Below are positions 1,805 to 35,336 of a stretch of DNA of 41,573 bases, piece by piece. Position 1 is the stretch's first letter. Each line of letters starts with the position of its first letter. The stretch is from the IMG/VR virus record IMGVR_UViG_3300043436_000306, positions 1 through 41,573 of that record, one strand, 5' to 3'. The stretch comes from a virus. Made by a program: the position numbers and the translations under genes. The notes beneath the pieces were generated by a model. It was not told where the DNA came from and ran no database searches. It saw nothing but the letters and a program-made list of their open reading frames with translations.

Positions 1805-3259
1805 TTAAAAAGCAACTTCAACCAACTCTACTTTAGCAACTACTCTACAAGTTACACTACCACCACCTGCAAAGGTTGGTGCTGTAAAAGTTAAAGCCAA
1901 TTCTTGAGAAGCACCTGCTGTAGGTATGAGTGAAGCAGAACCCATAGATGCGTCTTCTTGAGGAATAGAGAAACTACCTCCACCTACTAAAGAAGATACA
2001 CCACCTACTTTCTTAAAGCCAATTTCTATATTTTGTGATTTTGTATCCCCTACTGTTACCCCTGTTGCAGTACCCGTAATAGTAGTTACTACTGCTACAT
2101 ACTTAATTGTTACGTTCCACATACGATTTGTGCCAGTTGGAATAATCAGATTTGTAACACCTGTACCATCCAAAGAAAGCACAGTAGTTCCACCTGTTGT
2201 TAAAACTCCATCATTATAAGCAATTACATTAGAAACCTGTGTTCTGCCTCTTACTGGACTACCACCAACTGCACCATGTACAAATTGATTTCTCAAATAT
2301 GGATTTGGAGAAATACCAATACTTGTCGTATAATCTCCTGATAACCATTCGGTAAAATCCGCTAAGGCTTTATTTCCAATACCCGAACCCATTTGATTGC
2401 TACTTCCTAAAGCAAAGTTATTTGCACCCCCAGTAATTGTATTTGAATTACCTATTGCATATCCCTTCAAAGATGTTCCCGATATAGTATTAGCAACTCC
2501 AAATATGACATTATCACCAAGAGATGCAGAAATAGTATTTGATTGACCTACAATAAAAGAATATTTGCCACCAGAAATTGTATTCGCTCTACCAAAAGAA
2601 TATACACCTCTACTCGATGTCATATTATTACTTTCTCCTATCGCAAATGAATTTTCAGTACTTCCATTAGCGTTTACAGTATTTGATGACCCTAAAGCAT
2701 AAGCCCCTATACCAGCAGTATTATTTGTGTTTCCTAAAGCAACATTAAATTGACCACTTGCCGTATTTGTAAACCCACCACTCACGCTATATGCACCGCT
2801 TGATGTATTTGTACTACCTCCTACTACTGTAGCGTATGTGTTTGTAGATGCAGTGTTAAGATATCCACCTGAGATGGTGCTGTATTGAGAAGTTACAGAA
2901 TTACTTCTACCTCCGCTAATTGTTGAACCACCTGTTCCACTACCTATGTTAATATTATTTAATTGACCTCCACCAATAAATGAATGTCCAGCACCTCCTG
3001 TTATTGTATTACTTGCACCTCCAACAATAGTTTTGAAATTATCTAAATTTCCACTTGTTGAATTATTTGCACCTCCACCAACAAAATCTCCAACACCAAG
3101 AGCTGAATTATTTGCACCACCACATACAACTGAAATATCTCCACTTGCAACTTGTGTATTTGCAGTTCTTGATGTTTGTAAATCAACAGCATTTTCACCT
3201 CTTGTACTACCTCCAGCAATAGTTCCGTCTTCTTGTCCTAATATAAATTTAGTTCCCAT
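1805..3259 (-). CDS. Phage fibre/adhesin with YadA-head-like repeats and beta-sandwich cap (484 aa)
   Basis: An elongated trimeric-adhesin-type virion fibre, presumably used for receptor binding or surface decoration. Residues 1-45 form the short 'type B' N-terminus (GGSTRGENAVDLQ, then TANTQVASG), shared with the genes at 3277, 20413 and 21416. Residues about 45-300 are 14-15-residue repeats with the pattern S-x-h-x-GG-x-x-NT-x-SG, like YadA/Hep_Hag head repeats. A neck (about 325-365) leads into a C-terminal beta-rich cap of about 120 aa that begins TTVLSLDGTG and contains the TNRMWNVTIKYVA and TAGASQELALTFTAP motifs. The same cap occurs in the 534-aa fibre and, on a different N-terminus, in the 192-aa gene at 22362. 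No S74 peptidase or collagen domain is seen. It lies 17 nt downstream of the 534-aa fibre, with an A-rich leader. Confidence 0.85.
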   Translation of the reverse strand: MGTKFILGQEDGTIAGGSTRGENAVDLQTSRTANTQVASGDISVVCGGANNSALGVGDFVGGGANNSTSGNLDNFKTIVGGASNTITGGAGHSFIGGGQLNNINIGSGTGGSTISGGRSNSVTSQYSTISGGYLNTASTNTYATVVGGSTNTSSGAYSVSGGFTNTASGQFNVALGNTNNTAGIGAYALGSSNTVNANGSTENSFAIGESNNMTSSRGVYSFGRANTISGGKYSFIVGQSNTISASLGDNVIFGVANTISGTSLKGYAIGNSNTITGGANNFALGSSNQMGSGIGNKALADFTEWLSGDYTTSIGISPNPYLRNQFVHGAVGGSPVRGRTQVSNVIAYNDGVLTTGGTTVLSLDGTGVTNLIIPTGTNRMWNVTIKYVAVVTTITGTATGVTVGDTKSQNIEIGFKKVGGVSSLVGGGSFSIPQEDASMGSASLIPTAGASQELALTFTAPTFAGGGSVTCRVVAKVELVEVAF

Positions 3260-3276: not shown

Positions 3277-4881
3277 TTAATAAGCAACTTCTACTAATTC
3301 TACCTTAGCAACACAACGGAATGTTGTAGCACTTGCTGTAGTAGGTGCTTTGAATGTGATTTGTAAGTCTTGAGATGCACCTGCAGCAAAGGTAAATGCA
3401 GCAGTTGCCATGTTTGTATCATAAATAAGGTTAGCGGAATTTACGCCTACCACAGAACTTATACCTCCTACTCTCTTAAACAAAAGAGTAAACTCTCCCA
3501 TATAAGAGTCTCCTAATACTAAAGTACCACCAGCAACACTAACAAATGCTGTTGCTACTACTTTAACTGCCCATAGTCTGTTGTTACCATTAGGAATAAT
3601 TAAATTAGTTGTTCCTGTTCCATCAAGTGAGAGGACAGTTGTGGCTGCTGAGTTTAAAGCGGCTTGTCTACGTGCAGTTAATGTAGATTGTTGAGCATCA
3701 CCCGTTGTTGAAAATCTACCCGAAGCAGAATTAATGCTACCATATTGATACCCTAAACATTGTAATCCACCAACTATTGTAATATATTTATCTTCTATGC
3801 CTCCGGATGCTAAATTACTTTGACCTCCTAAAATTGTAGAATAAGAACTGCCAGAAACAGTATTAGAAGTGCCTATTGCGATACTATTATTTCTACCTAC
3901 AGAATTATAAAATCCTATTGCCATTGTAGTAAAATGAGAGCAGGAATTGCCCAATCCAAAATTATAAGTATCTTCAGTACCCGTATTTGAATTACTAAAA
4001 CCAAACGCAAAAGCAGAGGCATTTGAACCCGTATTACTAAAACCTATTTTTACAGAACTATTGGTTACAATATTGTTACTACCCAATGCAATGCTATTTA
4101 AACCACTTGCTGTATTACTGAATCCACCACTAATACTATATTGCCCACTACTTGTATTACCCTGCCCACCTATTACGGTAGCATGTGTGCCTGTAGATGC
4201 TGTGTTTGATTGTCCGCCTGATACTACGCTAAAAGCGGAAGTAGCATTATTACTAAGTCCGCCTAATGAATTACTAAACTCTGCGGTTGCTGCATTTGCT
4301 AAACCAAAAGCAACGGCTGCTCTACCACTTGCAGTAGCCCCTAACCCTCCGCCTTGTTCACCACCTATGGCAACACTACCACTACCACTTGCAAAACAAC
4401 TACCACCTAACGCAACTGCGTTTGTTCCACTTGCAGTTGCTGAACCACCTGCAAGAGAATATGCTCCTGACGCAGTAGACACATTACCTCCAATAACAGC
4501 ACTATAATCACCTGACGCTACTTGTGTTTGAGCAGTTCTACCACCCGGTTTCAAATCCACAGCATATTGACCCCTTGCGTTACCACCACCTGTTGGCGTT
4601 CCATCTGGAATACTTGCTATCAAAGCACCTGTACCATTAGGAGCAATTACTAAATTTGCATTAGTTGTGGTTGCTTGGATTACAGAAGATGTTTGAGTTG
4701 TTACTGAAGAATCTGAAGTAATACCTACTCTTCTTGTAGAAATATATAAAGGAGATCCGGTACCAAGACCATCCTGTACTTGTCTTAATGTTGTATCTAA
4801 TACAGTACCTACTGGTAACTGAAGATTATTAGTACCTCCACCTCCTCCACCTACTGAAAAGAATTTAGCATATCTAGCCAT
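3277..4881 (-). CDS. Phage fibre/adhesin with YadA-head-like repeats, long N-terminus (534 aa)
   Basis: A close relative of the neighbouring 484-aa fibre but with an added N-terminus of about 95 residues (MARYAKFFSVGGGGGG, then LPVGTVLDTTLRQVQDGLG and NLVIAPNGTGALIASIPDG) before the type B segment (GGNARGQYAVDLKPGGRTAQTQVASG written in pieces across 97-125). Residues about 125-395 are YadA-head-like SxxxGGxxNTASG repeats. The C-terminus is the same beta-sandwich cap, with TTVLSLDGTGTTNLIIPNG and TNMATAAFTFAAGASQDLQ. The extra N-terminus probably attaches the fibre to a different virion site than its shorter relatives, or it is the direct anchor of a two-part fibre. It starts 3 nt after the 100-aa gene, so the two are probably translated together. 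The function as a fibre is confident; the receptor is unknown. Confidence 0.85.
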   Translation of the reverse strand: MARYAKFFSVGGGGGGTNNLQLPVGTVLDTTLRQVQDGLGTGSPLYISTRRVGITSDSSVTTQTSSVIQATTTNANLVIAPNGTGALIASIPDGTPTGGGNARGQYAVDLKPGGRTAQTQVASGDYSAVIGGNVSTASGAYSLAGGSATASGTNAVALGGSCFASGSGSVAIGGEQGGGLGATASGRAAVAFGLANAATAEFSNSLGGLSNNATSAFSVVSGGQSNTASTGTHATVIGGQGNTSSGQYSISGGFSNTASGLNSIALGSNNIVTNSSVKIGFSNTGSNASAFAFGFSNSNTGTEDTYNFGLGNSCSHFTTMAIGFYNSVGRNNSIAIGTSNTVSGSSYSTILGGQSNLASGGIEDKYITIVGGLQCLGYQYGSINSASGRFSTTGDAQQSTLTARRQAALNSAATTVLSLDGTGTTNLIIPNGNNRLWAVKVVATAFVSVAGGTLVLGDSYMGEFTLLFKRVGGISSVVGVNSANLIYDTNMATAAFTFAAGASQDLQITFKAPTTASATTFRCVAKVELVEVAY

Positions 4882-13734: not shown

Positions 13735-14139
13735 TTATTTCAAGAAAAGCAACTTATATTTTGTAGAATTTATTAAAGCTTTAATTTCATCCATAGTATT
13801 AATGATACTTGAGCAGGTCATCATACCTTGTACATAACCTATTTTATCATATAATACCCGCAAATATTTAATTGCTTCATCTGTAGTTTTAATAGCCGGG
13901 ATAGACATTTGATCAGGATATGGTAAAAGCATTTCTTCTTTACCCTGATACTGTTCAGCTAAACCATCAGCTACCTCTACAATTTCATCATAGAACTCAC
14001 CCATAGTTATATGAGCAGAATAGCTAGTGCTTAGTAAATGAGCAATGTGAACTTTAGTAGATGCATGTAGCATCTCATAAATAAGTTCTGCCATTGCTTT
14101 ATGAGCACCAGTAGAAGGACGTTGTAATTTTTGTATCAT
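13735..14139 (-). CDS. Ferritin/Dps-like four-helix phage protein, DUF5856-like (134 aa)
   Basis: All-helical: KAMAELIYEMLHASTKVHIAHLL (about 14-36), HITMGEFYDEIVEVADGLAEQY (about 43-65), then two helices towards the C-terminus (ATTDEAIKYLRVLY; SSIINTMDEIKALINS). The H-x-x-H pattern in the first helix and an E-x-x-D/E pattern in the second are the layout of Dps or ferritin-like bundles, and phage proteins of the DUF5856 type have the same size and pattern. It is 2 nt from the connector-like gene. A role in protecting DNA or binding metal is inferred; a purely structural role is possible, since it lies inside the connector block. Confidence 0.7.
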   Translation of the reverse strand: MIQKLQRPSTGAHKAMAELIYEMLHASTKVHIAHLLSTSYSAHITMGEFYDEIVEVADGLAEQYQGKEEMLLPYPDQMSIPAIKTTDEAIKYLRVLYDKIGYVQGMMTCSSIINTMDEIKALINSTKYKLLFLK

Positions 14140-16093: not shown

Positions 16094-18091
16094 TTATGCT
16101 ACAAAAGTCCATCCTGTAGATTTGTATACGTAAAGACCTTCTACTGCATCTGTGCAATAAACCATAAGACCGACAGCAGGGGTAGCAATAAGCAAACGTT
16201 GTGCGTTTGTCATTCGGGGTGGGAGGAATCCTTGTGTTGTACTTAGCACTTCAAGCATTGCAGAATCATCCATAACGTAAGCGTTTCCAGAACTAATTAT
16301 TGCTCTATTAGATAAAATTCCAATACTTTTCAAACCTGCAATAGCACCACCAGCAGCATAAATAGAAGCACCATTTGGATTGCTTGCGTCAGCACCTAAA
16401 TTTGATATTGCTACAATAGGATTAGCAGTAGAGTTAACCAGTAAACCTACCGTTCCATTCCATGGTCCGCCTTGTATATTTACAGCAAATCCACCTGGTG
16501 ACGATTGTCTTACATATACAGTATTAGATAATTCAATATAATTATCATCTCTAACTTTTAATAATTGTGTATTAGAACTATTCTGCACCAAAAGAGATGT
16601 AGTGCCCGATGTAGCTCCTGAACCTTGTACTTGTAAACGTGCTGTCTCTGTTGTTGTTCCAATAAGTAAACTGCCATTTGGTGTTAAACGCATTCTTTCA
16701 GTATATACACCCAAACCACATTCAAAATAAATACAACCCGTTGGATTGCCATATTTAGCACCCAAATGTAGACCACCCGTTGATTGGTTATTTATTATTA
16801 TTCGTGTATCTTGATTTACACCATTTCGCAAACCATAAATTTCAGAATTTCCCGTTGTTGTAAATAACAAATTACCACTGTCTATTGTTAGTTTTTCAGT
16901 TGGTGCACTAGTACCAATACCCACTCTACCACTTGTAGTAGCAAGTAATACATCACCTGTAACTGTCTCAATAGCACGGTGAGTAAATCCAACAGTACCT
17001 GTTAACGTAGGGTTGTAATAAAATCCACGTTGTAAAGTTGTACCTGCTGTAGTATTTACTACTCCGTTAATATTAATATGATTTAATGTTACATTTCCTA
17101 TTGAAGTAGCAATATCAATAGGGATTTCTAATACATTACCTACACTTGTTCCACCTGCACCACCATTTGTAAAACCAGCTGAGTTACCAACTAATCGTAA
17201 GTTTGAGTTAGTAACATTGTTAGGACTAAAACTAGTATTCTGAAAAGTAAAGTTTTGACTACCTGCCCTTAAGGTATCGTTGTTTATCTGAACATAACTT
17301 GCTCCTTGTAATTGTAATTGACCCCAAGCAGAAAACAATAAACCAATACTTCCATCCATATACATATTGCCTGTGCTATAAACACGACTACCTCCAAATA
17401 CATATAAGTCATCACGTACTGTTAAAGCAGCATTTCCTGCACTATTCTGTACTCGTAATGCAGTAGTAGCAGAAGTTGAGCCTTCTCCAAGAATTTCTAA
17501 TTTAGCAGTAGCAATAGTAGTTCCAATGCCTATTTTTCCATCGGGGGCAACTTGTAAACGTGTTGTTAGTCCACCGCCATTCCAAGTAACTAATCGTAAA
17601 CCACCTACTCTATCTGTTCCCGTACCTCCATAATAACCATAAATTGCAGAACAAGTTTGCGAAGGTGGACTATAGGTAGAATTAAAATATCCACCAAATG
17701 CTAAACGACCTATTTCAGTACCATTTGTTAAATTTACACTTCCATTTTTACGATAATTAATTATTTGACCAATAGTAGCAGACGTATCTTGTTCAAGTAA
17801 AAGAAGATTACTAACAGAAGCACTACTATTATAAACGTTTAATGGAGCAAGTGGTGTAACTGTTCCTACTCCTAGTCTTTTGTTTACATTATCCCAGAAT
17901 AATCCAGCGTCACCACCTAATGCAGTATTATCATTAAATTGTACATAACCATTAAGCCCGGCTGGTTTAGCAGAGTTGTTATTAATGTACTCTACAATAG
18001 TATTTAAATGCCCAAACTTTGCTACTTCAAAGTCTTGACTATTACGGATAAACATATCCGGGGATTTTGGTATAAATCTTTCTAAAGCCAT
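16094..18091 (-). CDS. Fibre with AKFGHLN anchor, GIGT modules and FLPPRMT cap (665 aa)
   Basis: Residues 1-36 are the 'type A' anchor (RFIPKSPDMFIRNSQDFEVA, then KFGHLNTIVEYIN), almost identical to the anchor of the 563-aa fibre. The shaft has repeated GIGT-type modules (RLGVGTVTPLAPLNVY; RVGIGTSAPTEKLTI) and two copies of a segment containing GSGxTSxTTSLLVQNSxxxxLxxVRDD. The C-terminus has the cap GFLPPRMTNAQRLLIATPAV, then GLMVYCTD. GIGT modules are typical of trimeric beta-solenoid tail fibres that normally end in an S74 chaperone; here the FLPPRMT cap takes that place. A receptor-binding or decorating fibre is likely. It is preceded by a structured leader at 18107-18151. Confidence 0.85.
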   Translation of the reverse strand: MALERFIPKSPDMFIRNSQDFEVAKFGHLNTIVEYINNNSAKPAGLNGYVQFNDNTALGGDAGLFWDNVNKRLGVGTVTPLAPLNVYNSSASVSNLLLLEQDTSATIGQIINYRKNGSVNLTNGTEIGRLAFGGYFNSTYSPPSQTCSAIYGYYGGTGTDRVGGLRLVTWNGGGLTTRLQVAPDGKIGIGTTIATAKLEILGEGSTSATTALRVQNSAGNAALTVRDDLYVFGGSRVYSTGNMYMDGSIGLLFSAWGQLQLQGASYVQINNDTLRAGSQNFTFQNTSFSPNNVTNSNLRLVGNSAGFTNGGAGGTSVGNVLEIPIDIATSIGNVTLNHININGVVNTTAGTTLQRGFYYNPTLTGTVGFTHRAIETVTGDVLLATTSGRVGIGTSAPTEKLTIDSGNLLFTTTGNSEIYGLRNGVNQDTRIIINNQSTGGLHLGAKYGNPTGCIYFECGLGVYTERMRLTPNGSLLIGTTTETARLQVQGSGATSGTTSLLVQNSSNTQLLKVRDDNYIELSNTVYVRQSSPGGFAVNIQGGPWNGTVGLLVNSTANPIVAISNLGADASNPNGASIYAAGGAIAGLKSIGILSNRAIISSGNAYVMDDSAMLEVLSTTQGFLPPRMTNAQRLLIATPAVGLMVYCTDAVEGLYVYKSTGWTFVA

Positions 18092-18570: not shown

Positions 18571-19824
18571 TTATAATGTTACCCATGCACCATTGTAAAA
18601 ACAAGGTCTATTAAGATCGGTATCAAATATTTGAAGACCAATAGCTGGACTTGCAATTAAGTTCTTTTGTGCTGTTGTCATTCTTGGTGGTAGGAAGCCT
18701 TTTAGATAAGTAGCATCAGACCTAACTTCTAACAATGCACTTACATCAGCAGCATCCGTAGTAGGTACGTTATGACCTACAATCAATGTACTCGCCCGTG
18801 ATGCACCTGTATCTTTTACGATTATTTTAGGCTGTGCATTAATCATTATCTGATTAGATACAGCAGCAGAATAAAAACCAATACCTAAACCTAATGATTG
18901 TTCTATGTATGTATTTGATGGACTGCCCAAAAATGAAATTTTATCGTATTCAATTTGTATTCTACCTTGAAAATTAGCGTTCAAATCATCTTTTACTTGA
19001 AACGCAGTATTACCTGCACTATTCTGCACTAATAAAGAAATAGTAGCTGAGGTAGATCCACTGCCTTTGATGCCAACAATAGCCGCCATATCCGCAGTGT
19101 TGTTAAATGATACGTTACCATTGGTTTGGAAAACGTGTTTTGTCAATCCATTAACGTCTAAAGAAAGCAATGGTAATGTACTACCTATTGTATTTATTAT
19201 ATTACCTGCGTGTATATTATATGCAGTGGTTGGGCTAATAGCATCGTCAATATAACTACCTGCACCATGACCCGATATATTTACTTTTAAGTTTCCATAT
19301 TGTGTTAAAACAAATTGATAAGAACCAAAACCACTACTTTCCGCAACACTCATAGAATATTTACCTCTACGTGTAGTTCCATCTCCATTATACGTTAATG
19401 CTTGTCTAAACAATGTTGCTGTTGCACCATTTCTGCGACCAACGTAGTCACCTTGATAAACACCTGTCCCATTGGGCATATTTACACCTGCGTTGTCTTG
19501 TATAAATATGTTATTAATTCCACCGCTATATTTACTTTGGTAAACATCACCACTTTCAATAAATGTTAACGTAGGTAACAGATTTGTTCCATCTTGATAC
19601 GTGCGAATTGCACCCACAGCAGTAGTAGATCCAGAAGGATTAGCTGAAAAATCAATATAACCCGGTGTATTATTAATACCGGCAATCTTTATATCAGTTA
19701 AAGCATATGTACCATTTAAATAATCTACAATAGTATTCAAATGACCAAACTGGGCCAGTTTCATATCACTATCTTTAGTGATATAAGGATCTGGTGATAA
19801 AGGGATAAATCTTTCTAAAGGCAT
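18571..19824 (-). CDS. Fibre with AKFGHLN-type anchor and FLPPRMT cap (417 aa)
   Basis: Type A anchor at 1-37 (RFIPLSPDPYITKDSDMKLA, then QFGHLNTIVDYLN), so Ala-Lys is replaced by Ala-Gln in this copy. A segment at about 50-90 (IDFSANPSGSTTAVGAIRTY, then DGTNLL) is also present in the 186-aa gene next to it. One SLLVQNSAGNTAFQVKDD module lies at about 280, as in the 665- and 563-aa fibres. The C-terminus has LKGFLPPRMTTAQKNLIASP, then GLQIFDTD and YNGAWVTL. It is shorter than its relatives, with only one or two GIGT-like shaft modules. Role: receptor-binding or decorating fibre, inferred. Confidence 0.85.
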   Translation of the reverse strand: MPLERFIPLSPDPYITKDSDMKLAQFGHLNTIVDYLNGTYALTDIKIAGINNTPGYIDFSANPSGSTTAVGAIRTYQDGTNLLPTLTFIESGDVYQSKYSGGINNIFIQDNAGVNMPNGTGVYQGDYVGRRNGATATLFRQALTYNGDGTTRRGKYSMSVAESSGFGSYQFVLTQYGNLKVNISGHGAGSYIDDAISPTTAYNIHAGNIINTIGSTLPLLSLDVNGLTKHVFQTNGNVSFNNTADMAAIVGIKGSGSTSATISLLVQNSAGNTAFQVKDDLNANFQGRIQIEYDKISFLGSPSNTYIEQSLGLGIGFYSAAVSNQIMINAQPKIIVKDTGASRASTLIVGHNVPTTDAADVSALLEVRSDATYLKGFLPPRMTTAQKNLIASPAIGLQIFDTDLNRPCFYNGAWVTL

Positions 19825-19841
19825 GATTATTTAATTTAAAT

Positions 19842-20402
19842 TTATGGTACATACTTTATAGCATTTCCTGCAGCAGGATCATACCATAAAGAACCTGAAG
19901 GTAATCCGGCAGAACTATTTGGTAAACTGGTAATACCCAATTTTAAAATATTTACTAGACCATCCTCTCTAAATGTTACAACATCACTTAAATTAATACC
20001 ATCTACATAGGTTCTAATACCACCTACAATAGTAGTACTACCAACTGGATTAGAGGCAAAGTTTAAGTTTACTTGCTGAGATGAAGGAACTCTAGTGATA
20101 TTAAAACGGTTAGTTGCACTACCATCTTCAATATCCAAATACATTGCACTAATATCATCTGTAGTAATGCGTAATGGACTTGTAAACTGAGCTGAATTAA
20201 TAGATAATTTAAGACTAGTTAAATTACCATATGCATCCATTATTGGTGTAAGAGTTGCAGTTAACGGACCAGTTGTTGCTAGTTTTAAACTATCTGCTAG
20301 ATAATCAACAATAGTATTAATGTGACCAAATTTGGCCAATGACATATCAGCGTCAGTGTTTAAATATGGATCAGGAGATAAGGGGACAAATTTGTTTATC
20401 AT
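19842..20402 (-). CDS. Minimal fibre or anchor protein (186 aa)
   Basis: Type A anchor (KFVPLSPDPYLNTDADMSLA, then KFGHINTIVDYLADSL), very close to the anchor of the 680-aa fibre. It continues with GPLTATLTPIMDAYGN, the LRITTDDISAMYLDIEDGS module, the shared NFASNPVGSTTIVGGIRTY segment and a short unique end, AGLPSGSLWYDPAAGNAIKY. That end is a compact cap seen on many phage fibres. No repeat array is present, so it is either a short fibre or a connector that docks to the same place as the longer ones. It lies 10 nt after the 333-aa gene and 17 nt before the 417-aa fibre. Confidence 0.8.
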   Translation of the reverse strand: MINKFVPLSPDPYLNTDADMSLAKFGHINTIVDYLADSLKLATTGPLTATLTPIMDAYGNLTSLKLSINSAQFTSPLRITTDDISAMYLDIEDGSATNRFNITRVPSSQQVNLNFASNPVGSTTIVGGIRTYVDGINLSDVVTFREDGLVNILKLGITSLPNSSAGLPSGSLWYDPAAGNAIKYVP

Positions 20403-20412
20403 TTTATTTATA

Positions 20413-21414
20413 TTATACAGGGTTTGAGATATCTTGTAACATCTGAACTCTAGCTGCTACACGGTAATTAGAAGAATAACTAGGTCTAAACCTAATAGTA
20501 ATTGAGTTAGGATACAATGTTGAAGTTGCATATAATACTACTGAAGAGTTTAATGAGGCATCACCCGCTTTTGCAATAGGATCACTCTCTACACTAAAGA
20601 TAACTCCACCAGCACTATTTACACGGTTAACCATTACTGTATCTTCACCAGTGATTACTCTGTTGTTTACTAAATCAATAGCAACCCAGTTTACATTTAA
20701 TGACCAAGCCATAGGAACGGGTGCACCAGTAACAGGATTACGATCATGCAACATAGTTAAATCTTTTCCTAAATCAGGAATATTAGCCATATCACCATTT
20801 GTTTGTAATTTAGCAGGTACGCTATTTGTTGCAATACCTTCATAGAATACGGTAATAACAGAATGTTGAACAGCTTTTAATAATCCAATTGCTTCATAAA
20901 AACGTGAGTTTCTTACTTGCTCACCTTCATGTACTGGCCAAGCAAATCCACCAGAAAAGATTGCAGTAGTAGGAGCTTGAGCATCACCATCACTAGAATC
21001 TGTACCAATGTAGTATGTTTGGCAGTTAAGAATAGTACTATGCCTATTTAAATCATTAAGCATAATACCATTTTCACCAAATGCAAAATGATAATTACCT
21101 TTTAACTGATTATAACTACCACCTAGAAATGATGTAAAAGCACTTGATTTGTTTGAGTAACCAAATACAAATGAATTTGCACCATCACATTCATTATATG
21201 CTCCAACTACTGTACTTGCTTCTCCATTAGCAACGTTATTAAATCCACCCATTACTGAGGCGTAACTAGCACCAGCTTTATTATCACCACCACCAATTAA
21301 GATAGAAGCATAACCGCTAGCAACCATATCTGCAGCTGTTTTAACAAAGTTAAAGTCTACTGCATAATTACCGCGAGCATTTCCTTTATTAGGAGTAAGT
21401 ACATAATTTCCCAT
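20413..21414 (-). CDS. Fibre/adhesin with YadA-like repeats and beta cap, type B anchor (333 aa)
   Basis: Type B N-terminus (NKGNARGNYAVDFNFVKT, then ADMVASGYASILIGGGDN). About 40-125 are five to six SxxxGGxxN-x-A-x-G repeats (SVMGGFNNVANGEASTVVGA). A linker with YYIGTDSSDGDAQAPTTAIF follows. The C-terminal cap of about 150 aa contains MAWSLNVNWVAIDLVNNRVI, ITGEDTVMVNRVN and IAKAGDASLNSS. The cap aligns with the cap of the 313-aa neighbour (N-x-x-W-x-V, then KAGDxS) and, less well, with those at 1805, 3277 and 22362. The gene overlaps nothing and is 1 nt from the 313-aa gene. Role inferred: short receptor-binding or decorating fibre. Confidence 0.85.
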   Translation of the reverse strand: MGNYVLTPNKGNARGNYAVDFNFVKTAADMVASGYASILIGGGDNKAGASYASVMGGFNNVANGEASTVVGAYNECDGANSFVFGYSNKSSAFTSFLGGSYNQLKGNYHFAFGENGIMLNDLNRHSTILNCQTYYIGTDSSDGDAQAPTTAIFSGGFAWPVHEGEQVRNSRFYEAIGLLKAVQHSVITVFYEGIATNSVPAKLQTNGDMANIPDLGKDLTMLHDRNPVTGAPVPMAWSLNVNWVAIDLVNNRVITGEDTVMVNRVNSAGGVIFSVESDPIAKAGDASLNSSVVLYATSTLYPNSITIRFRPSYSSNYRVAARVQMLQDISNPV

Positions 21415-21415
21415 A

Positions 21416-22357
21416 TTAGTTAGATTTTAATTCTGTAATAGTAAGTTTTGCAGATCCACGGAAGATAGTAGTACCAAGTGAAGAACCACCAGTAGGAATC
21501 ATAGTTACAGACATATCATTGGCTGTATTGTAAGCAGCATTCCAAACAGAAGTCATAGAAAAATCTCCAGCTTTACTAATGTTAGTTGAAGTAACTAATC
21601 TTACAACTCCACCTACTTTATGTACAACTACTAAATCTTTACCTACAACTACTTGACTAGTAGTCTGGTTAATCAACATCCACTCAGATACAACCTGCCA
21701 TACTTTGTTAGCTGAATTAATAATTAATTCATTAGTTACTGCTGGAGGTAAACCATCCAATGTATATTGAATTGAACTAAATGCACCGGCTGATTGAGAT
21801 ACTTCACGGAATACCAATAACTCACTTACTTGGAAAGTACCACCACCACCATATTGAGAACGGGGGTTAGTAATTAATTGACCAGGCAAATATGATAATC
21901 CACCAGCACCACCAATAATAGTAGAATAAGGAGCTGTGCTAAATGTTGCAGAACCTACAGAGTTAATAATGGCACTACTGATAGCAGCAGTTGTATTACC
22001 ATTACCAATTGCAATAGATGCTTGGGCATTTGCATTATTTTCTAATCCAATTGCTGCAGAACCTTGAGCAGTTGCTTCATTACCAGCACCTAATGCTAAT
22101 GATGATTCACCACTAGCAATGTTACCAGCACCACCTGTAACGGCATAAGTACCGGTACTAGTATTACCATATCCACCCATTACGGCAGCATATAATCCAT
22201 TGGCAGTGTTATTAGCACCACCTACAATCATAGAACCTCTTCCAGATGCAACTTGATATGGAGTTGTACGGGTTAATTGTAAATCAATTGAATCAGCACC
22301 TCTGGCAGCACCATTCTTTACACTACCATCACCAATTTGTAATGAAAAATTTGACAT
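21416..22357 (-). CDS. Fibre/adhesin with YadA-like repeats and beta cap, type B anchor (313 aa)
   Basis: Type B N-terminus (GSVKNGAARGADSIDLQLTR, then TTPYQVASGRGSMIVGG). About 45-145 are YadA-like repeats (NNTANGLYAAVMGGYGNTST; SLALGAGNEATAQGSAAIG). A neck follows at about 160-190, and then a cap of about 120 residues (NKVWQVVSEWMLINQTTSQV, then VGKDLVVVHKVGG and ISKAGDFSMTS) that matches the 333-aa fibre. The gene is separated from the 192-aa gene by 4 nt, so the three neighbours (192, 313, 333 aa) are probably translated in sequence. Same class of role as its relatives; receptor unknown. Confidence 0.85.
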   Translation of the reverse strand: MSNFSLQIGDGSVKNGAARGADSIDLQLTRTTPYQVASGRGSMIVGGANNTANGLYAAVMGGYGNTSTGTYAVTGGAGNIASGESSLALGAGNEATAQGSAAIGLENNANAQASIAIGNGNTTAAISSAIINSVGSATFSTAPYSTIIGGAGGLSYLPGQLITNPRSQYGGGGTFQVSELLVFREVSQSAGAFSSIQYTLDGLPPAVTNELIINSANKVWQVVSEWMLINQTTSQVVVGKDLVVVHKVGGVVRLVTSTNISKAGDFSMTSVWNAAYNTANDMSVTMIPTGGSSLGTTIFRGSAKLTITELKSN

Positions 22358-22361
22358 GATA

Positions 22362-22940
22362 TTAGAAAGTTAATTCAGTGAAATATACATCCGCCCTCAA
22401 TTTAAAGCCTGTTCCACTAGCAGTGCTAGGAGCTTGAAACTGAATACGGAAATCTTGAGATGCACCAGCAGTAAATAATACCTGAGAAGTTTCCATACTT
22501 GCATCAGCTACAGTTACTGCTCCGTTAATACCTACTACAGAAGCAGTACCATTTACACGTTTGAACAATACAGTATACTTACCTAAGAAAGAATCTCCTA
22601 ATGCTACGGTGCCACCAGCTGTAGAGCATACAGCGGTAAAGTCTACATTAACAGACCAAGCACAGTTATTACTAACAGGTACTAAGTAGTTAGTAGCTCC
22701 TACTAAGAAAGAGGTTGCAGGAATTGATAACAAAACTGGATCAGTTTCTCTAAACAATTCTGCAGTAGCACCACTACCTAAGCTAATAGTACGTAACATT
22801 TTTTCTTCTACGTGCTCATTGATATAATCAACAATCCGGTTTAAGTGACCAAAACGTGCTTGAGTACTATCAGCAGCAGTTTTACCTACACCAGTAACCC
22901 ATCTATCAGGGTTTAACACAACAAATTTTCCAATTGCCAT
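22362..22940 (-). CDS. Hybrid mini-fibre: AKFGHLN-type anchor fused directly to beta cap (192 aa)
   Basis: Residues 1-42 are a diverged type A anchor (KFVVLNPDRWVTGVGKTAAD, then ARFGHLNRIVDYINEHV). Residues about 60-192 are the beta-sandwich cap seen on type B fibres: NNCAWSVNVDFTAVCSTAGG, LGDSFLGKYTVLFKRV and FTAGASQDFRIQFQAPSTAS. No repeat region is present, so the anchor is joined to a cap that elsewhere follows YadA-like repeats. This is the clearest single example of module exchange in the array. It could act as a short receptor-binding or decoration protein. It is 4 nt upstream of the 313-aa gene in the direction of transcription. Confidence 0.85.
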   Translation of the reverse strand: MAIGKFVVLNPDRWVTGVGKTAADSTQARFGHLNRIVDYINEHVEEKMLRTISLGSGATAELFRETDPVLLSIPATSFLVGATNYLVPVSNNCAWSVNVDFTAVCSTAGGTVALGDSFLGKYTVLFKRVNGTASVVGINGAVTVADASMETSQVLFTAGASQDFRIQFQAPSTASGTGFKLRADVYFTELTF

Positions 22941-22975: not shown

Positions 22976-23302
22976 TTATGCCCAAGGCAAAGGTGTGTTT
23001 TGTGGCACTACTGGAGGATTTTTTTGTGACTCAATCTGGCCATCAATACAAGCAGTAATAGAAAGAATACCATTCTCTCCTAACTCTTCTTTAATCCACT
23101 CAGTAACAATTTCTGGGGTTAATTCTGCGTAAGGAATAAACTCTTGTCCTTCTTTTACAGTAAACATCTGGCTACCATTTACAGAGGCTGAAAATTCACC
23201 ATCTACTCCGGTAACATCAAACATAGCAGTTACTACGTAATCTTGTAATCCATCTACAGTCTTTGTGTAGAGATTAGTAATTGTCCAATTATAAGTTGTC
23301 AT
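22976..23302 (-). CDS. DUF7936-like phage protein downstream of repeat fibre (108 aa)
   Basis: A short beta-rich protein: YNWTITNLYTKTVDGLQDYV followed by TAMFDVTGVDGEFSASVNGS, then FIPYAELTPEIVTEWIKEEL, a helix, and a C-terminal tail with IDGQIESQKNPP and LPWA. Proteins with the WTIxxLYxxxxDGLxDYVxxxxFxVxG start and LTxExVxxWI helix are common beside fibre genes and match the phage DUF7936 pattern as I remember it; no function is known. It follows the 680-aa repeat fibre by 35 nt, like the other small genes that follow fibres. Likely assembly partner or accessory virion protein (inference). Confidence 0.75.
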   Translation of the reverse strand: MTTYNWTITNLYTKTVDGLQDYVVTAMFDVTGVDGEFSASVNGSQMFTVKEGQEFIPYAELTPEIVTEWIKEELGENGILSITACIDGQIESQKNPPVVPQNTPLPWA

Positions 23303-23337: not shown

Positions 23338-25380
23338 TTATACTGGTTGTAGAGCAATATAATAGTCTACTCCGTTAATTCTTACTTTCCATCTTTGTGT
23401 AGGAGTTACTGCTGCTGTATCAATTGCACCTGCGTTAACCGTTGCACTACCAAAAGAAATTTCATTTGATGCGGTTGGAGAAGATGTTGTTGCTCCATAA
23501 CCTAATAAAAGATTATTGTTTCCTGTTGTTATACCCGTTCCTGACGTTCTTCCTATTGCTGTATTCCCTGCTCCTGTTGTTAGGTTACTTAGTGCTTGAT
23601 ATCCAAATGCAGTATTGTTGAAATTGGTAGAAAGTTGTAAACTTTGTTTACCCATTGCTGTATTTCCACTACCACTAACATTTGAATTTAAAGCCAAATG
23701 TCCAAACGCTGTATTACTAACACCTGTTGTGTTGGCATATAGTGCTTGATATCCAAAAGCCGTTACATCCCCACTCGTATTATTATACCCTGCTGCGAAG
23801 CCTACTGCGGTGTTGTTTGAGGCAGCGTTAAAGAATAGGGCTTGAGTTCCCATCGCAGTATTATTATCTCCTGTATTGGCTTGGAGAGCAATGTAACCAA
23901 AAGCAGCGTTGTAAGAACCCGATGTGTTTTGTAGCATTGACTGATAACCCGTTGATACGTTACCCCTACCTGTGGTGTTGTCTCTTAAAGAACTATGACC
24001 AACAGATGTGTTTACGTCACCTGTTGTTGTACTATACCCTGCTTGATAGCCGACTGCAGTATTATTAGAGGTTGTATTAGAATATAATGCTGATGTTCCT
24101 AAAGCTGTATTATTATTACCAGTTAAATTACTACGTAAGCTATCAACACCATAAGCAACATTTAAAGAACCTCCGGTATTTAAACGTAAAGCACTATCTC
24201 CGGTAGCTGTATTTGCACCACCAGTAGTAGTAGCATTTAATGTATATGAACCAATACCCGTATTAGAATTTGCTGTAGTATTACTAAATAATGCTGAATT
24301 TCCTAAAGCTGTAAGATTATTACCAGTAGAATTATTACGTCCTGCTTGATATCCAACGGCTGTATTACCAGAAACAGTATTAACACGTAAGGCGGTACTA
24401 CCTACTGCTACGTTTTGACTTGAAGATTGACCACTTACTCCTTGCAAAGCAGTATTACCTACTGCTACGTTATCACTACCAGTAGCATTCCAAATTGATG
24501 CAAAATATCCTATAGCCGTGTTACCACTACCCGTTGTATTAGATGTTGCAGAATTGCCACCAAATGCAGTATTTTGAAAACCCGTTGAGTTAAAATACAA
24601 TGATGAATATCCAAACGCACTATTGTTACCCCCCGTGGTATTGCTATATAAAGCATAAGCGCCCACAGCCGAACTGTTATTTGCGGTATTATTAAATAAA
24701 GATACATAACCCAACGCAGTATTATTTGAACCTGATAGGTTTGATAATAAAGACCTATGACCTATTGATGTATTGTAATTACCTGTTGTATTGTTATACA
24801 AAGATTCAAAACCACTTGCTGTATTTTGAGTTCCTGTTGTATTGTAAAACAAAGAGTTTGTACCTGTAGCAGTATTTGAATTTCCTGTAGTGTTGTTATA
24901 CAAAGCACTACTACCATTAGCACTATTAAAACTTCCTGTCGTATTCAAACCTAAAGCATAAGTACCTACTGCATTGTTTTCTGAACCTGTAGTGTTTAAG
25001 TTCAAAGCGTAAGCACCTGAAGCATGATTGTAACCTCCTGTTGTAACACTCTTCAATGCTTGATATCCTATAGCAGTATTCTCTACACCTGTAGTATTAC
25101 TCAATAAAGCATCTGTTCCAAATGCTGTATTACTAGTAATAGATCCACCACCATAGTTGGTAATAGAAGAACTAGACATTCTTAAAGGTGTAGTATTTCC
25201 AGCAGGATCTAGTACAGTTTTTATTATACCAGATATTAAACCATCCCCGGATAATTTTAATCCGCCACTGTTATTAATATATTCTACAATAGCATTGATA
25301 TGACCAAACTTGGCCAAAGACATATCGGGATCACTATTCAAAAATGGATCTGGAGATAAAGGAACAAATTTGTTAATCAT
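23338..25380 (-). CDS. Repeat fibre with AKFGHLN anchor and about 32 seventeen-residue repeats (680 aa)
   Basis: Type A anchor (KFVPLSPDPFLNSDPDMSLA, then KFGHINAIVEYINN). Residues about 40-83 are a linker with GIIKTVLDPAGNTTPLRMSS. About 84-630 are roughly 32 repeats of 17 residues (N-T-A-h-G-x-x-A-L-x-x-N-T-T-G-x-x). The C-terminal cap is FGSATVNAGAIDTAAVTP, then RWKVRINGVDYYI. Repeat opening, repeat type and cap are the same as in the 913-aa fibre, while the anchor is that of the other type A fibres. The two repeat fibres thus differ mainly in where they attach and how many repeats they have. Trimeric beta-roll architecture and receptor binding are inferred from the family. Confidence 0.85.
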   Translation of the reverse strand: MINKFVPLSPDPFLNSDPDMSLAKFGHINAIVEYINNSGGLKLSGDGLISGIIKTVLDPAGNTTPLRMSSSSITNYGGGSITSNTAFGTDALLSNTTGVENTAIGYQALKSVTTGGYNHASGAYALNLNTTGSENNAVGTYALGLNTTGSFNSANGSSALYNNTTGNSNTATGTNSLFYNTTGTQNTASGFESLYNNTTGNYNTSIGHRSLLSNLSGSNNTALGYVSLFNNTANNSSAVGAYALYSNTTGGNNSAFGYSSLYFNSTGFQNTAFGGNSATSNTTGSGNTAIGYFASIWNATGSDNVAVGNTALQGVSGQSSSQNVAVGSTALRVNTVSGNTAVGYQAGRNNSTGNNLTALGNSALFSNTTANSNTGIGSYTLNATTTGGANTATGDSALRLNTGGSLNVAYGVDSLRSNLTGNNNTALGTSALYSNTTSNNTAVGYQAGYSTTTGDVNTSVGHSSLRDNTTGRGNVSTGYQSMLQNTSGSYNAAFGYIALQANTGDNNTAMGTQALFFNAASNNTAVGFAAGYNNTSGDVTAFGYQALYANTTGVSNTAFGHLALNSNVSGSGNTAMGKQSLQLSTNFNNTAFGYQALSNLTTGAGNTAIGRTSGTGITTGNNNLLLGYGATTSSPTASNEISFGSATVNAGAIDTAAVTPTQRWKVRINGVDYYIALQPV
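23490..25131. repeat. Coding array of about 32 degenerate 51-bp repeats
   Basis: In-frame 51-bp units encode the 17-residue NTAxGxxALxxNTTGxx repeats of the 680-aa fibre. The repeats are related to the array at 8453-10619, about 13 kb away in the same orientation, which offers a path for deletion, expansion or gene conversion between the two fibres. Individual units are too diverged to be long exact repeats. Confidence 0.75.
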
Positions 25381-25406: not shown

Positions 25407-27098
25407 TTACCAATGTGCCTGCCATGCAGTACCATCATAAGTGTAAGATTTATTAGTGTCAGTGTCATATACAATAAGACCAGCTGCTGGTAAAACAATT
25501 CCTGTACGTTGAGTAGTAGTCATACGTGGTGGTAGGAATCCTTTGGTTGTGGATGATACTTCAAGAACCGCAGACGCTACTTGTGGAATTGAAATATCAC
25601 TATCTGAAACTTTTCCTCCGTTGTTATTTCCATGAACACCACCACTTAAAGCACCCGTAGATATAATAGTACCATTGTTACTTCCAATAAATGCGTAACT
25701 ATTTACACTAAGTGTGTTAGAAAAAAATGACCAATTTATGAAATCTGTACGACCAATTTGTACTAGACCTTCATCCCCAACCTTAAATACTTGCGTTGCC
25801 GAACTATTCTGAATCAAAAGTGATGTACTACCTGCCGTTGAACCTTGACCTTGAATATGAACTAATGCAGTAGGTGTGGCAACAGAAGAAAAACCAACAC
25901 GTAATGCCCCTGATTCGCTAAACAACTGAAAAGGAAATTGACCACCTGCTACGTTTTCCATAATCAAAGACAATCTTTGAGTACCCGTAAAACCACCTGT
26001 ATTGGCTTGTCCCCTATCTCGTAAACGTAATAAAGAAACTATTTGGTTATTTGCACCTGCTGTAAGATTTGGGTTTATATCGCTATAAAAAAAATCAGCA
26101 CCTACACCTGCACTTTGTACAGAATAAAAACTACTTTGTCCACCAACTGTTAATAGTGCAAATGGTGTAGAAGTTCCAATACCTACCCTCATGTTGGCTA
26201 AGTCCCAAGATGTAAGTTCTGTGTAGTTGTTATCGTAAACTGCTAGTCTATTTGCATAATACGCTTGTCCTATGTGGTAAGTACTACCGTAGCCTGTATT
26301 ATAAAAAGTTACTCTATTACCGTATGCTGCATTTGTTTCTAATGTTAAAGCATTAACACCACTATCAAAATTAGGGTATACTTTTAAATTCCCTTGTTGT
26401 ACCTGGAAAGGAATATTAATATTATTACTATTGGTTATTTCAACATACCCGTTATCTTTAACTTGTAATAAAGCAGAAGCATTTGAATTCTGAACTAATA
26501 ATGAGGTGGTAGCAGAAGTTGAGCCACTACCTTTGATTTGTAATTTAGCCGATATACTACTTGTTCCTATACCAAAATTTCCACTAACGTCAAACCTAGC
26601 CGTTTCAAAATTATTAGTACCAAATACCAAAGGAGTACCATTATAAGTGCCGACTACCAAAGGTATGTTGTTAATTCCTAAGTGCATAAATAGTCCTGCA
26701 TCATTTGCTGCAAATCCAAAACGAGAAGTACCAGATGACCCTATGTAAAAATCCGAACCGATAGTTTTTATATATGCTAGAGAACTTGCAGTAGAATCTC
26801 CTAACGTAGTATGAATTCCAGACGCGAATACTGTTAGTTTAGATGTTGGTGTAGTAGTTCCAATACCAATATTTCCACTACTAATAGCAAGAGAACTAGC
26901 GTTACCTAAAGAGTCAGTAATGTATCTTGCAGTAGATGTTAATGGACCAGTCCCAGCTAATTGTAAACTATCAGCTGCTACATATGTATTAACATACTCA
27001 ATAATAGTATTAAGATGGCCAAATTTAGCCACTTCAAAATCCTGACTATTTCTAATGAATGGATCTGGTGATTTAGGTATGAATCTCTCTAATGGCAT
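25407..27098 (-). CDS. Fibre with AKFGHLN anchor, GIGT modules and FLPPRMT cap (563 aa)
   Basis: Type A anchor at 1-38 (RFIPKSPDPFIRNSQDFEVA, then KFGHLNTIIEYVN). The shaft has GIGT-type modules (NIGIGTTTPTSKLTV at about 74; MRVGIGTSTPFALLTVGGQ at about 310), two GSTSATTSLLVQNS or GSTAGSTSLLIQNS modules, and a C-terminal cap: TTKGFLPPRMTTTQRTGIVL, then GLIVYDTDTNKSYTYDG. This is the first fibre after the capsid module in the direction of transcription. It and the 665-aa fibre share the most similar anchors and shafts in the array but diverge in the central parts, so they probably recognise different receptors. Fibre role is confident; receptor unknown. Confidence 0.85.
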   Translation of the reverse strand: MPLERFIPKSPDPFIRNSQDFEVAKFGHLNTIIEYVNTYVAADSLQLAGTGPLTSTARYITDSLGNASSLAISSGNIGIGTTTPTSKLTVFASGIHTTLGDSTASSLAYIKTIGSDFYIGSSGTSRFGFAANDAGLFMHLGINNIPLVVGTYNGTPLVFGTNNFETARFDVSGNFGIGTSSISAKLQIKGSGSTSATTSLLVQNSNASALLQVKDNGYVEITNSNNINIPFQVQQGNLKVYPNFDSGVNALTLETNAAYGNRVTFYNTGYGSTYHIGQAYYANRLAVYDNNYTELTSWDLANMRVGIGTSTPFALLTVGGQSSFYSVQSAGVGADFFYSDINPNLTAGANNQIVSLLRLRDRGQANTGGFTGTQRLSLIMENVAGGQFPFQLFSESGALRVGFSSVATPTALVHIQGQGSTAGSTSLLIQNSSATQVFKVGDEGLVQIGRTDFINWSFFSNTLSVNSYAFIGSNNGTIISTGALSGGVHGNNNGGKVSDSDISIPQVASAVLEVSSTTKGFLPPRMTTTQRTGIVLPAAGLIVYDTDTNKSYTYDGTAWQAHW

Positions 27099-27142: not shown

Positions 27143-28093
27143 TCAAACTAGTTCTTCCTCTGAAAAATTTAAAAAGTCCCGGTAAGTATCATATTTACGT
27201 TGTAGGTATACAGTAGAGTCTTTGTATAAGTAAGTAGCTATTTTTCTAGCATCTTTTCCATAATAAGATATCTGGTATAAATTTTTACCATTAGATTTAG
27301 TAGGATACTTATCTTTTACACCGGCATACTTATTACAAAATATTGCAAATTCAAAAATTGTTTCTAGTGTACCACATAATGTAATATGACCAGTATTATC
27401 TTTTCTCCAATAAACACCACCATCACCATCTATACATCCACGCCAAAAATCACGGGAATCTTTTAATAATTCATGAGGTGCTATACTTGTACTTTTATTA
27501 TGTGTAAAGCCTAGTTCTACAAGTCTATCTCTAAGTGGTTTAGAGTTAACTCTTAATCTAGAACAATCTCCATTACTTTGTTTAATATCCCGGCTACTAC
27601 CTAAGAACTCTTTAAACTTATATAAGTGATCTATATCATTATTGTGTAGTGTAAGATCTATAGATGCCTCTTTTTTTTGTTCTATATGCCCATCTGTAAA
27701 TAACATACCTATCCAGTATAAAACTTCAGGGGTTAATTCATCAAAAGCATGATGATTAATTTCAGTGTTATTGTTAATATGCTGTTGTTGAGATTTATCT
27801 CTGTATTCTACACCAGCTTCTTTAAGTAATTCTCTAATTGTTTTCCGGGTAAGTTTAAGTGTAGTCTCTATATAAAGTTGAGACTTACCCTGGTTATATA
27901 ATTCTATAACCTCTTGTAATTGTTTTTCTCTTGCTTTCTTTCTTTCTGCATCATAGTCTATACCGCAAGATAGTAAGACTTTTTTAACAGTTGGTTGAGA
28001 GGAAGAAGTGAGCTTACATATTTCAGTAAGCATCACTCCCTCATCATACAACCTTTGGATTTCTTCTTTTTTAGTATTTGTTGTCTTGTACAT
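27143..28093 (-). CDS. LAGLIDADG homing endonuclease with two helix-turn-helix units (316 aa)
   Basis: Free-standing homing endonuclease of the LAGLIDADG family: YWIGMLFTDGHIE (126-138) and FWRGCIDGDGGVY (216-228) are the two catalytic helices with their acidic ends. The N-terminal 100 residues contain two resolvase/transposase-type helix-turn-helix units (about 8-45 and 56-97), as found in phage-borne endonucleases for DNA binding. It inserts directly after the major capsid protein gene and before the fibres, in the same orientation. Such genes spread by cutting genomes that lack them near the insertion site. Nothing suggests it is inside an intron. It has no role in virion assembly. Confidence 0.85.
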   Translation of the reverse strand: MYKTTNTKKEEIQRLYDEGVMLTEICKLTSSSQPTVKKVLLSCGIDYDAERKKAREKQLQEVIELYNQGKSQLYIETTLKLTRKTIRELLKEAGVEYRDKSQQQHINNNTEINHHAFDELTPEVLYWIGMLFTDGHIEQKKEASIDLTLHNNDIDHLYKFKEFLGSSRDIKQSNGDCSRLRVNSKPLRDRLVELGFTHNKSTSIAPHELLKDSRDFWRGCIDGDGGVYWRKDNTGHITLCGTLETIFEFAIFCNKYAGVKDKYPTKSNGKNLYQISYYGKDARKIATYLYKDSTVYLQRKYDTYRDFLNFSEEELV

Positions 28094-28142: not shown

Positions 28143-29762
28143 TCAGAACGATCCGCCCGTAATTGGGTTACGCATTACTATCTTCAATACTTTGGTCGGG
28201 TCCTTCACCCAGATGGCTGGCATGGTCTGACTCATGTATACACGGTATCCATTGAACTGACCAGAGCTTTGGAAGCCTTGAGTACGTCCCATGTAATCCA
28301 TAGTACCATTTTGGTAGAACCACTTCAATTGATTATCCCAAGACAATTTCAACATGAAGATGTTATCATTTACGTTATCAGTGATATCAAAGATAATGTA
28401 GTTATAAGAACTCAATGGGAAACCATCAATCAAGGGGTTTTCAATATCGTTAGTGTGTAAGTTGTCAAATGCAGGGTTCAATACAAACTTAACGTTAGCC
28501 AAGAAAGGAATTACATAGCTGGTGTAAGCAAATCCAAAGTTCAAGTCCATACCTTTACCAGTAATAGCACCAATTTCTTGAGCATTGATGATCATACCAG
28601 ATTGGATAGCCTCTTTCTTGATAGCCTCGTTAACCAACTTCATACCACCCATACCAGTTTGTACAATCAACTGACGCTTAGGATCTGGACCTTGGAAGTC
28701 AACCTTACCCAAGTAGAAGTTATAAATCTCAGACTTGAACAAATCCAAGTTAAAGCTAGACTTGTTGTATACACGCTTAAAGCTGTTATCCAACTGCTTC
28801 CAAAGACCCACTGATAAGCGGATATCATCTGGACCATCTTGCTTAATCTTACCACCTTGTCCCCACATCAAGTAGGTCTCAATGTCATTAGCTACTTTAG
28901 TCAAGTGAGCTGCTTCCATTGTAGTCAAGAAAGTACGGGTCAAGTTACCATTGTCAAATGCACGCTTAACTGCATCTTTACCCATAGTTTGTACCATAGA
29001 CTCCAAGCTAGTAACTGAAGGATCCATAGTCTTGTCAAAGTTACGCCAGATTTCAGTTACAGGAATTGTACCATCAGCGTTCAAACCACCCTTCAACATC
29101 AAATCTGCACGAGAAGAGATTGAATAGTGTACGTGAGCTTCTGCACCACCTACATAGTTGTAGAATTCACGGAAACCAGCACCATACTGTCCGATATCAG
29201 AGAAACGCTCACCGTATTCACCACGAGCAGAACCTTTACGGAAGAACTTAGTACCAGATGCCAAGTATTTGTTGTCCAAAGAAACACCATTGCTGTTGTT
29301 TACCAATTGAACAGTGTAGATGAAACCATCACCAGTTGGGATGATATCATCAGCAGTGATGTACATTTCCAAACCGTTGTACTTATCATAAGTAACGATG
29401 TCACCATGACCAAATACACGCTTGTTCAATTTGATTTGGAAGTTAGTACCATCAATACCTTTAGTAGTATTGGTAGTATCTACATCAAGAACAACATAAG
29501 GAAGATCTTGAGCAACAGGAACCTGCCACTTGTACTCTCCACGAGCGTTGTCTACATTGATAATGTTTTTGCCACCAAAGCTAGAAAACTGGTACAAAGG
29601 CATTTCAACCTTTTGAGCCATAGCCCAAATGTCTACTGGACCTAAATCCATTGGTTCACTGCTTTTCAGCATGTTTACGAGGTGGTATGAATCTACGTGA
29701 GAACTAGCTTGGTAGCTGGTATCACGCAGAAATATACCATTGTTTAAAACTGGAGTTGCCAT
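28143..29762 (-). CDS. Major capsid protein, HK97-fold (539 aa)
   Basis: The 539-aa product follows a scaffold-like gene by 30 nt and is about the size expected for the capsid protein of this phage type. Sequence pattern: extended N-terminal arm (about 1-60), a beta-rich E-loop-like region with NVDNARGEYKWQVPVAQDLP (about 70-90), a central alpha/beta region with EAHVHYSISSRADLMLKGGL (about 208-230), the long spine-like helix DAVKRAFDNGNLTRTFLTTM (about 263-285) and a C-terminal domain ending PTKVLKIVMRNPITGG. No protease site is evident. The A-rich leader (caaacaaataaataatt) and codon use fit very high expression. Identity as capsid protein rests on position, size and pattern; a structure prediction would show the HK97 fold. 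Confidence 0.85.
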   Translation of the reverse strand: MATPVLNNGIFLRDTSYQASSHVDSYHLVNMLKSSEPMDLGPVDIWAMAQKVEMPLYQFSSFGGKNIINVDNARGEYKWQVPVAQDLPYVVLDVDTTNTTKGIDGTNFQIKLNKRVFGHGDIVTYDKYNGLEMYITADDIIPTGDGFIYTVQLVNNSNGVSLDNKYLASGTKFFRKGSARGEYGERFSDIGQYGAGFREFYNYVGGAEAHVHYSISSRADLMLKGGLNADGTIPVTEIWRNFDKTMDPSVTSLESMVQTMGKDAVKRAFDNGNLTRTFLTTMEAAHLTKVANDIETYLMWGQGGKIKQDGPDDIRLSVGLWKQLDNSFKRVYNKSSFNLDLFKSEIYNFYLGKVDFQGPDPKRQLIVQTGMGGMKLVNEAIKKEAIQSGMIINAQEIGAITGKGMDLNFGFAYTSYVIPFLANVKFVLNPAFDNLHTNDIENPLIDGFPLSSYNYIIFDITDNVNDNIFMLKLSWDNQLKWFYQNGTMDYMGRTQGFQSSGQFNGYRVYMSQTMPAIWVKDPTKVLKIVMRNPITGGSF

Positions 29763-35191: not shown

Positions 35192-35336
35192 AGTCTGTAA
35201 TTGTTGTGTTAGGTTGTTCTAATAATTCATTCATATTAATGTCTACAGTTTCCTCATCTTCATCAGAATAGTAACTGATATATGTTATATTAACTGTAAC
35301 ATTTTCCATTGCTGTTGTACTTATGCACCAGTTCAT
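35175..35336 (-). CDS. Small acidic protein between terminase and endonuclease (53 aa)
   Basis: A 53-codon frame with ATG at 35336-35334 overlapping the TAA stop of the terminase by 1 nt (TAATG). It ends with TAG at 35177-35175. The product is acidic (ITYISYYSDEDEETVDINMNE, read in pieces; LLEQPNTTITDYG). It exactly fills an otherwise empty gap and is in the same direction. An inner ATG at codon 10 (MENVTVNITYISYY) is an alternative start. No family is recognised. It may be a head-completion or terminase-associated protein, but this is a guess. It was too short for usual length cut-offs. Confidence 0.6.
   Translation of the reverse strand: MNWCISTTAMENVTVNITYISYYSDEDEETVDINMNELLEQPNTTITDYGLSL

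What the first reader, a model, noticed from the sequence alone, without database searches (positions are those of the whole stretch)
22362..22940. 192-aa anchor-cap hybrid as a fossil or minimal form of module exchange
The gene joins a type A anchor directly to the beta-sandwich cap that in the other genes follows a type B anchor with YadA repeats. It shows that caps move independently of anchors, and that the shaft is dispensable in at least one gene. It lies right beside two type B fibres with a related cap (21416, 20413), as expected if the cap was copied locally.
Basis: seen in the sequence. Interest (0 to 1): 0.6.

Follow-up and report, generated by a model that had tools for sequence, protein, structure and literature searches.

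The report
Old conserved short phage fibre protein
A small gene of an uncultured virus of bacteria, read at first as a leftover of recent gene shuffling, turns out to be an old, intact and conserved short fibre protein (a docking tag joined to a compact beta-barrel tip) that always travels with partner fibre genes which lack docking tags of their own.

Summary
Window 22362-22940 (minus strand) encodes 192 aa: a type-A anchor (residues 1-43) joined straight to a beta-jelly-roll cap (46-192), both far above shuffled controls. The interpretation mostly fails: it is no fossil, and no recent or local exchange. Five other IMG/VR contigs carry it at exactly 192 aa without a gap, down to 49-51% identity, in phages whose capsid protein is 87% identical. 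The hybrid caps form one clade (100/96) whose sister is the cap of gene 3277, 17 kb away, not those of neighbours 21416/20413; an ancient local origin is not formally excluded (AU p=0.07). Purifying selection is clear. Recent anchor-cap exchange does exist elsewhere (L031), and short anchor-A genes are common. The predicted cap resembles trimeric phage fibre tips and T4 gp9. The gene co-occurs with the 21416 family in all six genomes, and cap genes without an anchor always sit directly behind another cap gene (13/13 versus 3/24). Best reading: a conserved virion-attached short fibre, possibly the socket for two anchorless fibres.

The parts
22362..22940 (-). hybrid gene, 192 aa, anchor A + jelly-roll cap
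22812..22940 (-). anchor A module, residues 1-43 (helix 31-42 predicted; low confidence)
   Evidence: alignment A3, profile hit E 2.9e-17, model
22800..22811 (-). junction, residues 44-47: anchor ends and the first cap strand (46-54) begins with no shaft or long linker between
   Evidence: secondary structure of the model, alignments
22365..22805 (-). cap, residues 46-192, trimer-type beta-jelly roll
   Evidence: AlphaFold2 pLDDT about 90 over most of 93-192; VIA-align Z 10.0 to a Klebsiella phage fibre tip, 9.8 to T4 gp9
21416..22357 (-). first partner: anchorless YadA-like fibre with distant cap (313 aa), starts 4 nt after the hybrid's stop
   Evidence: co-occurrence
20413..21414 (-). second partner: anchorless YadA-like fibre with a still more distant cap (333 aa), 1 nt after the first partner
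3280..3636 (-). closest cap in the window (C-terminus of gene 3277-4881), 50% aa identity over 112 residues
   Evidence: tree
1808..2182 (-). second closest cap in the window (C-terminus of gene 1805-3259)
26985..27098 (-). anchor A of gene 25407-27098
25270..25380 (-). anchor A of gene 23338-25380
20292..20402 (-). anchor A of gene 19842-20402 (186 aa, another short anchor gene)
19711..19824 (-). anchor A of gene 18571-19824
17978..18091 (-). anchor A of gene 16094-18091
28143..29762 (-). major capsid protein gene upstream of the fibre array, used as yardstick of phage divergence
   Evidence: PHROG 11589 E 1.2e-30; comparison

Best explanation
The gene encodes a conserved, functional short fibre protein of the virion. 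Its N-terminal 43 residues are the same docking module that starts five longer fibre-like proteins of this phage, and bind it to the particle (inferred). Straight after it comes a beta-jelly roll that probably trimerises (inferred from its fold relatives) and is presented close to the particle surface, without a shaft. The anchor-cap join happened once, before the ancestor of phages whose hybrid proteins now differ at half of their residues, and has been kept by purifying selection (shown). It is encoded and inherited as the first gene of a block with anchorless cap-bearing fibres (shown), so I expect it to act with them on the particle; whether as an independent short fibre or as their socket is not decided.
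For: Six genomes (window included) carry the gene with identical length and a gapless alignment, 49-99% identity. The hybrid caps in the tree form one clade (100/96), sister to the gene-3277 cap clade (96/93). Substitutions are mostly synonymous: 45 nt changes give 9 aa changes against about 32 expected at random (minimum of 1000 simulations 22); dN/dS about 0.1-0.14. The hybrid is more conserved (94%) than its block partners (76-77%) between window and L003. Residues 46-192 model as a jelly roll whose best solved matches are the Klebsiella phage Kp9 tail fibre tip (Z 10.0), T4 gp9 C-terminal domain (Z 9.8) and Acinetobacter tailspike C-terminal domains; predicted-viral matches include many YadA-type phage proteins. 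Another short anchor-A gene carries a small domain that PHROGs files as tail fibre (L067, phrog_9017, E 6.6e-13).
Against: No virion protein data exist for this lineage; the anchor role rests on its position and repetition in fibre-like genes. The anchor is predicted with low confidence (pLDDT under 50 for 1-41) and has no meaningful sequence match in the PDB. Only 35 sequences fed the model. Trimerisation was not modelled. Most of the 80 contigs examined with this capsid protein show no hybrid in the DNA held, so it is not essential to the lineage as a whole.
Confidence: 0.72

Rival explanations
1. Socket model: the hybrid is the particle-bound base on which the two downstream anchorless fibres assemble, its jelly roll binding their trimers, as T4 gp9 holds the long tail fibre. 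(A special case of the best explanation, so the confidences overlap.)
For: Cap genes without an anchor lie 1-17 nt behind another cap gene in 13 of 13 cases, anchored ones in 3 of 24. Hybrid and the full-length 21416 family co-occur in the same six genomes, none found with one alone. The cap resembles the T4 gp9 domain (Z 9.8) to which long tail fibres attach coaxially (PMC3004832); beta-jelly rolls are a trimer-assembly motif in branched tailspike complexes (PMC8825819).
Against: No interaction data. The 13 cases come from about three gene lineages, so are not independent. Operon neighbours may simply share dosage. Fold similarity shows no function. Anchorless fibres might dock through their own first 15 residues.
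Confidence: 0.3
2. Fossil or recent local module exchange: a cap copied from the adjacent fibres onto an anchor, possibly on the way out.
For: The AU test does not formally reject one clade of hybrid and neighbouring caps (p=0.07), so a very old local origin stays possible. The modules are real.
Against: Closest cap is gene 3277, not the neighbours; purifying selection; the same gene is fixed in six genomes with hybrid proteins up to 50% diverged.
Confidence: 0.04
3. Origin by loss of the shaft from a long anchor-A/shaft/cap gene such as L031:4504-6339 or L050:2578-6357, rather than by direct fusion. (About origin, compatible with the best explanation of function.)
For: Anchor-A genes with shaft and cap exist, and a 76-aa anchor gene in L058 ends like the C-terminus of a shaft gene, so shafts do get lost.
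Against: The hybrid caps do not group with the L031 cap (AU p=0.047, marginal); anchors of the hybrids carry a 4-residue insertion not seen in the long genes aligned.
Confidence: 0.35

Closest known systems
phiCrAss001 head fibre proteins gp29 (dimer) and gp21 (trimer), PMC10172136
   Same: Short proteins made of an N-terminal particle-binding stretch (1-58, 1-38) and one small C-terminal domain (beta-sandwich in gp29), without a long shaft, in a distantly related phage group (window terminase about 24-26% identical to crAss-like phages)
   Different: No significant sequence similarity of anchor or cap; hexon-pocket binding is known there, the binding site is unknown here
T4 gp9, long tail fibre socket (1qex)
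   Same: C-terminal jelly roll of similar fold (Z 9.8, rmsd 3.1, 116 residues); particle-bound short trimer beside separately encoded fibres
   Different: 9% identity; gp9 has further N-terminal domains; a socket role is untested here
Kp9 tail fibre gp42 tip and Acinetobacter tailspike C-terminal domains
   Same: Best solved fold matches for the cap (Z 10.0; 6.5-8.6)
   Different: There the domain ends a long fibre or enzyme; here it follows the anchor directly
Domain mosaicism of phage receptor-binding proteins (PMC10684548)
   Same: Otherwise unrelated proteins sharing anchor or tip domains; seen here across anchor A and other N-termini
   Different: The focal gene is an old product of this process, not a recent one
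Branched tailspike complexes (CBA120 TSP4, G7C gp66/gp63.1; PMC8825819)
   Same: One anchored protein carries partners via jelly-roll modules
   Different: Interaction shown there, only inferred from gene order here

Membership tests
Recent local module exchange | highest cap similarity to the adjacent genes | tested here: not met
   gene 3277 cap 50% over 112 aa (99 bits) versus 26 bits for 20413 and no pairwise hit for 21416
Recent local module exchange | absent from diverged relatives | tested here: not met
   present, same length, in five further contigs, 49-51% identical in two of them
Pseudogene or fossil | relaxed selection or broken frame | tested here: not met
   intact; dN/dS about 0.1-0.14; 9 aa changes against about 32 expected
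Anchor-plus-tip short fibre (head fibre like phiCrAss001 gp29) | N-terminal particle-binding stretch followed by one small beta domain | tested here: inconclusive
   architecture met by sequence and model; particle binding not testable; no homology to gp21/gp29
T4 gp9-type fibre socket | jelly-roll C-terminal domain of gp9 fold | tested here: inconclusive
   VIA-align Z 9.8, rmsd 3.1, 116 residues to 1qex_A, but a similar Z to a fibre tip
T4 gp9-type fibre socket | binds partner fibres that lack their own anchor | not testable with these tools
   only gene order: 13/13 anchorless cap genes follow a cap gene
YadA-like trimeric fibre | YadA head repeats | tested here: not met
   no Pfam or PHROG match in the hybrid; Pfam YadA_head matches below cut-off in 21416 and 3277

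The most novel reading that the evidence does not exclude
The hybrid is the anchored base of a three-gene hetero-fibre: cap proteins in this phage lineage come in co-encoded sets in which only the first gene carries a docking module, and homologous jelly-roll caps assemble the anchorless fibres onto it.
Probability: 0.25. Interest if true: 0.6.

Novelty: new member of a known kind. Interest (0 to 1): 0.33.

Why it matters
It shows that an apparent anchor-cap swap can be an old, selected gene, and where a real, younger swap lies (L031). If the socket reading is right, it would give a simple genomic rule (anchorless fibre genes follow their anchored partner) for finding multi-part fibres in a phage lineage known almost only from metagenomes (at least 600 stretches in IMG/VR match its capsid protein).

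Tried and rejected
PHROGs and Pfam: no match for the hybrid. tblastn in 50,697 phage records: none. PDB by sequence: no meaningful hit for anchor or gene. Scan of bacterial and archaeal genome contigs: none. Homology of anchor or cap to phiCrAss001 gp21/gp29: none significant. Frameshift or readthrough joining hybrid and 21416: considered and rejected, because the spacing is 4 nt in four genomes but 2 nt in L058 and L099, so the frame relation is not kept. First structure alignments with anchor fragments were misaligned by MAFFT and not used. A hand-typed Fisher table was wrong and is replaced by the counted one. The model of 21416 was too weak to search (mean pLDDT 60.6). Phage families other than those in the VIA-align list were not seen among the fold matches, which proves nothing about them.

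Full report
What is there. The window is a 41.6-kb virus record of an uncultured tailed phage. Nearly all genes run on the minus strand: terminase (35336-37528, PHROG 6681), portal (31886-34639), major capsid protein (28143-29762), then an array of fibre-like genes. Terminase relatives among named phages are crAss-like and Flavobacterium phages at about 24-26% identity. The gene at 22362-22940 encodes 192 aa.

The observation. Residues 1-43 are a 'type A anchor' shared with genes 16094, 18571, 19842, 23338 and 25407; residues 46-192 match the C-terminal cap of gene 3277 (50% over 112 aa) and of 1805 (35%). Shuffled controls stay well below these scores. The model places a helix at 31-42 and the first cap strand at 46-54, so the anchor runs straight into the cap.

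Not recent, not local. The cap's nearest relative in the window is gene 3277, 17 kb away; the adjacent 21416 cap is seen only by profile comparison, and 20413 more weakly still. A maximum-likelihood tree of 42 caps joins the five hybrids then known into one clade (100/96), sister to the 3277 caps (96/93). An AU test does not formally exclude an ancient link to the neighbours (p=0.07). At DNA level hybrid and 3277 caps are 68% identical over 209 nt, too diverged for a recent copy.

Fixed and functional. Close orthologues (94-95%) are in L001-L003; diverged ones in L058 (50%) and L099 (51%), again 192 aa and gapless, while the capsid proteins of these phages are 87% identical. Changes between orthologues are strongly synonymous. 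The gene is one of many short anchor-A genes (70-250 aa); L058 has one of 76 aa.

Where younger exchange is. L031:4504-6339 (611 aa) matches anchor-A genes at 85-87% DNA identity over its first 230-240 bases and 3277-type genes at 74-82% over bases 508-672 and 1420-1836. Caps joined to anchor A do not form one clade (AU p=5e-7). Modules therefore do move, but the focal gene is an old case.

What the cap is. The best solved matches are a Klebsiella phage fibre tip (Z 10.0), T4 gp9 (Z 9.8) and tailspike C-termini, with TNF/C1q-type trimers at Z about 4-5.7. Computed: a jelly-roll prediction of good confidence. Inferred: trimer, surface position.

The block. In all six genomes the hybrid is followed by a 21416-type gene, and in the five where the contig reaches far enough by a second anchorless fibre gene. 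An independent search with the 21416 family returned the same five contigs as its full-length relatives. The supposed type B anchor motif begins the shaft: it is at residue 10-17 in anchorless genes but at 57-357 in others. Anchorless cap genes always directly follow another cap gene (13/13 versus 3/24; Fisher p=1.6e-7, but only about three gene lineages). This suggests that the first gene of each set supplies the attachment. T4 gp9 and CBA120 TSP4 show that phage jelly rolls can do this (PMC3004832; PMC8825819). The closest architectural parallel for an independent short fibre is phiCrAss001 gp29 (PMC10172136), without sequence homology.

Verdict. Observation confirmed; interpretation partly supported. 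Ordinary in kind, moderately interesting for the linked block.

Noticed in passing
L031:4504-6339: A 611-aa gene that is a clear DNA-level mosaic: anchor-A gene at its 5' end, 3277-type shaft and cap from about base 508 on.
   Followed up: partly
L058:5759-5989: A 76-aa gene made of anchor A plus an end like that of a shaft gene: shorter than the focal hybrid.
   Followed up: no
window 1805-3259, 20413-21414, 21416-22357: Cap genes that lack an anchor always sit 1-17 nt behind another cap gene; possible rule for multi-part fibres.
   Followed up: partly
window 13735-14139: Gene matching PHROG 858 (starvation-inducible regulator, Dps-like; E 3.8e-22) in the middle of the virion genes.
   Followed up: no
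window 4885-5187: 100-aa protein with weak similarity (40% over 67 aa, E 1e-5 in a single comparison) to head fibre gp29 of phiCrAss001.
   Followed up: partly
window 22976-23302: Pfam DUF7936 protein beside the fibre genes; similar 108-109-aa proteins recur in L001, L002, L031 and L181.
   Followed up: no
window 27143-28093, 31170-31886, 34649-35191: Proteins that look by eye like homing endonucleases between the head genes; not tested against a family library.
   Followed up: no
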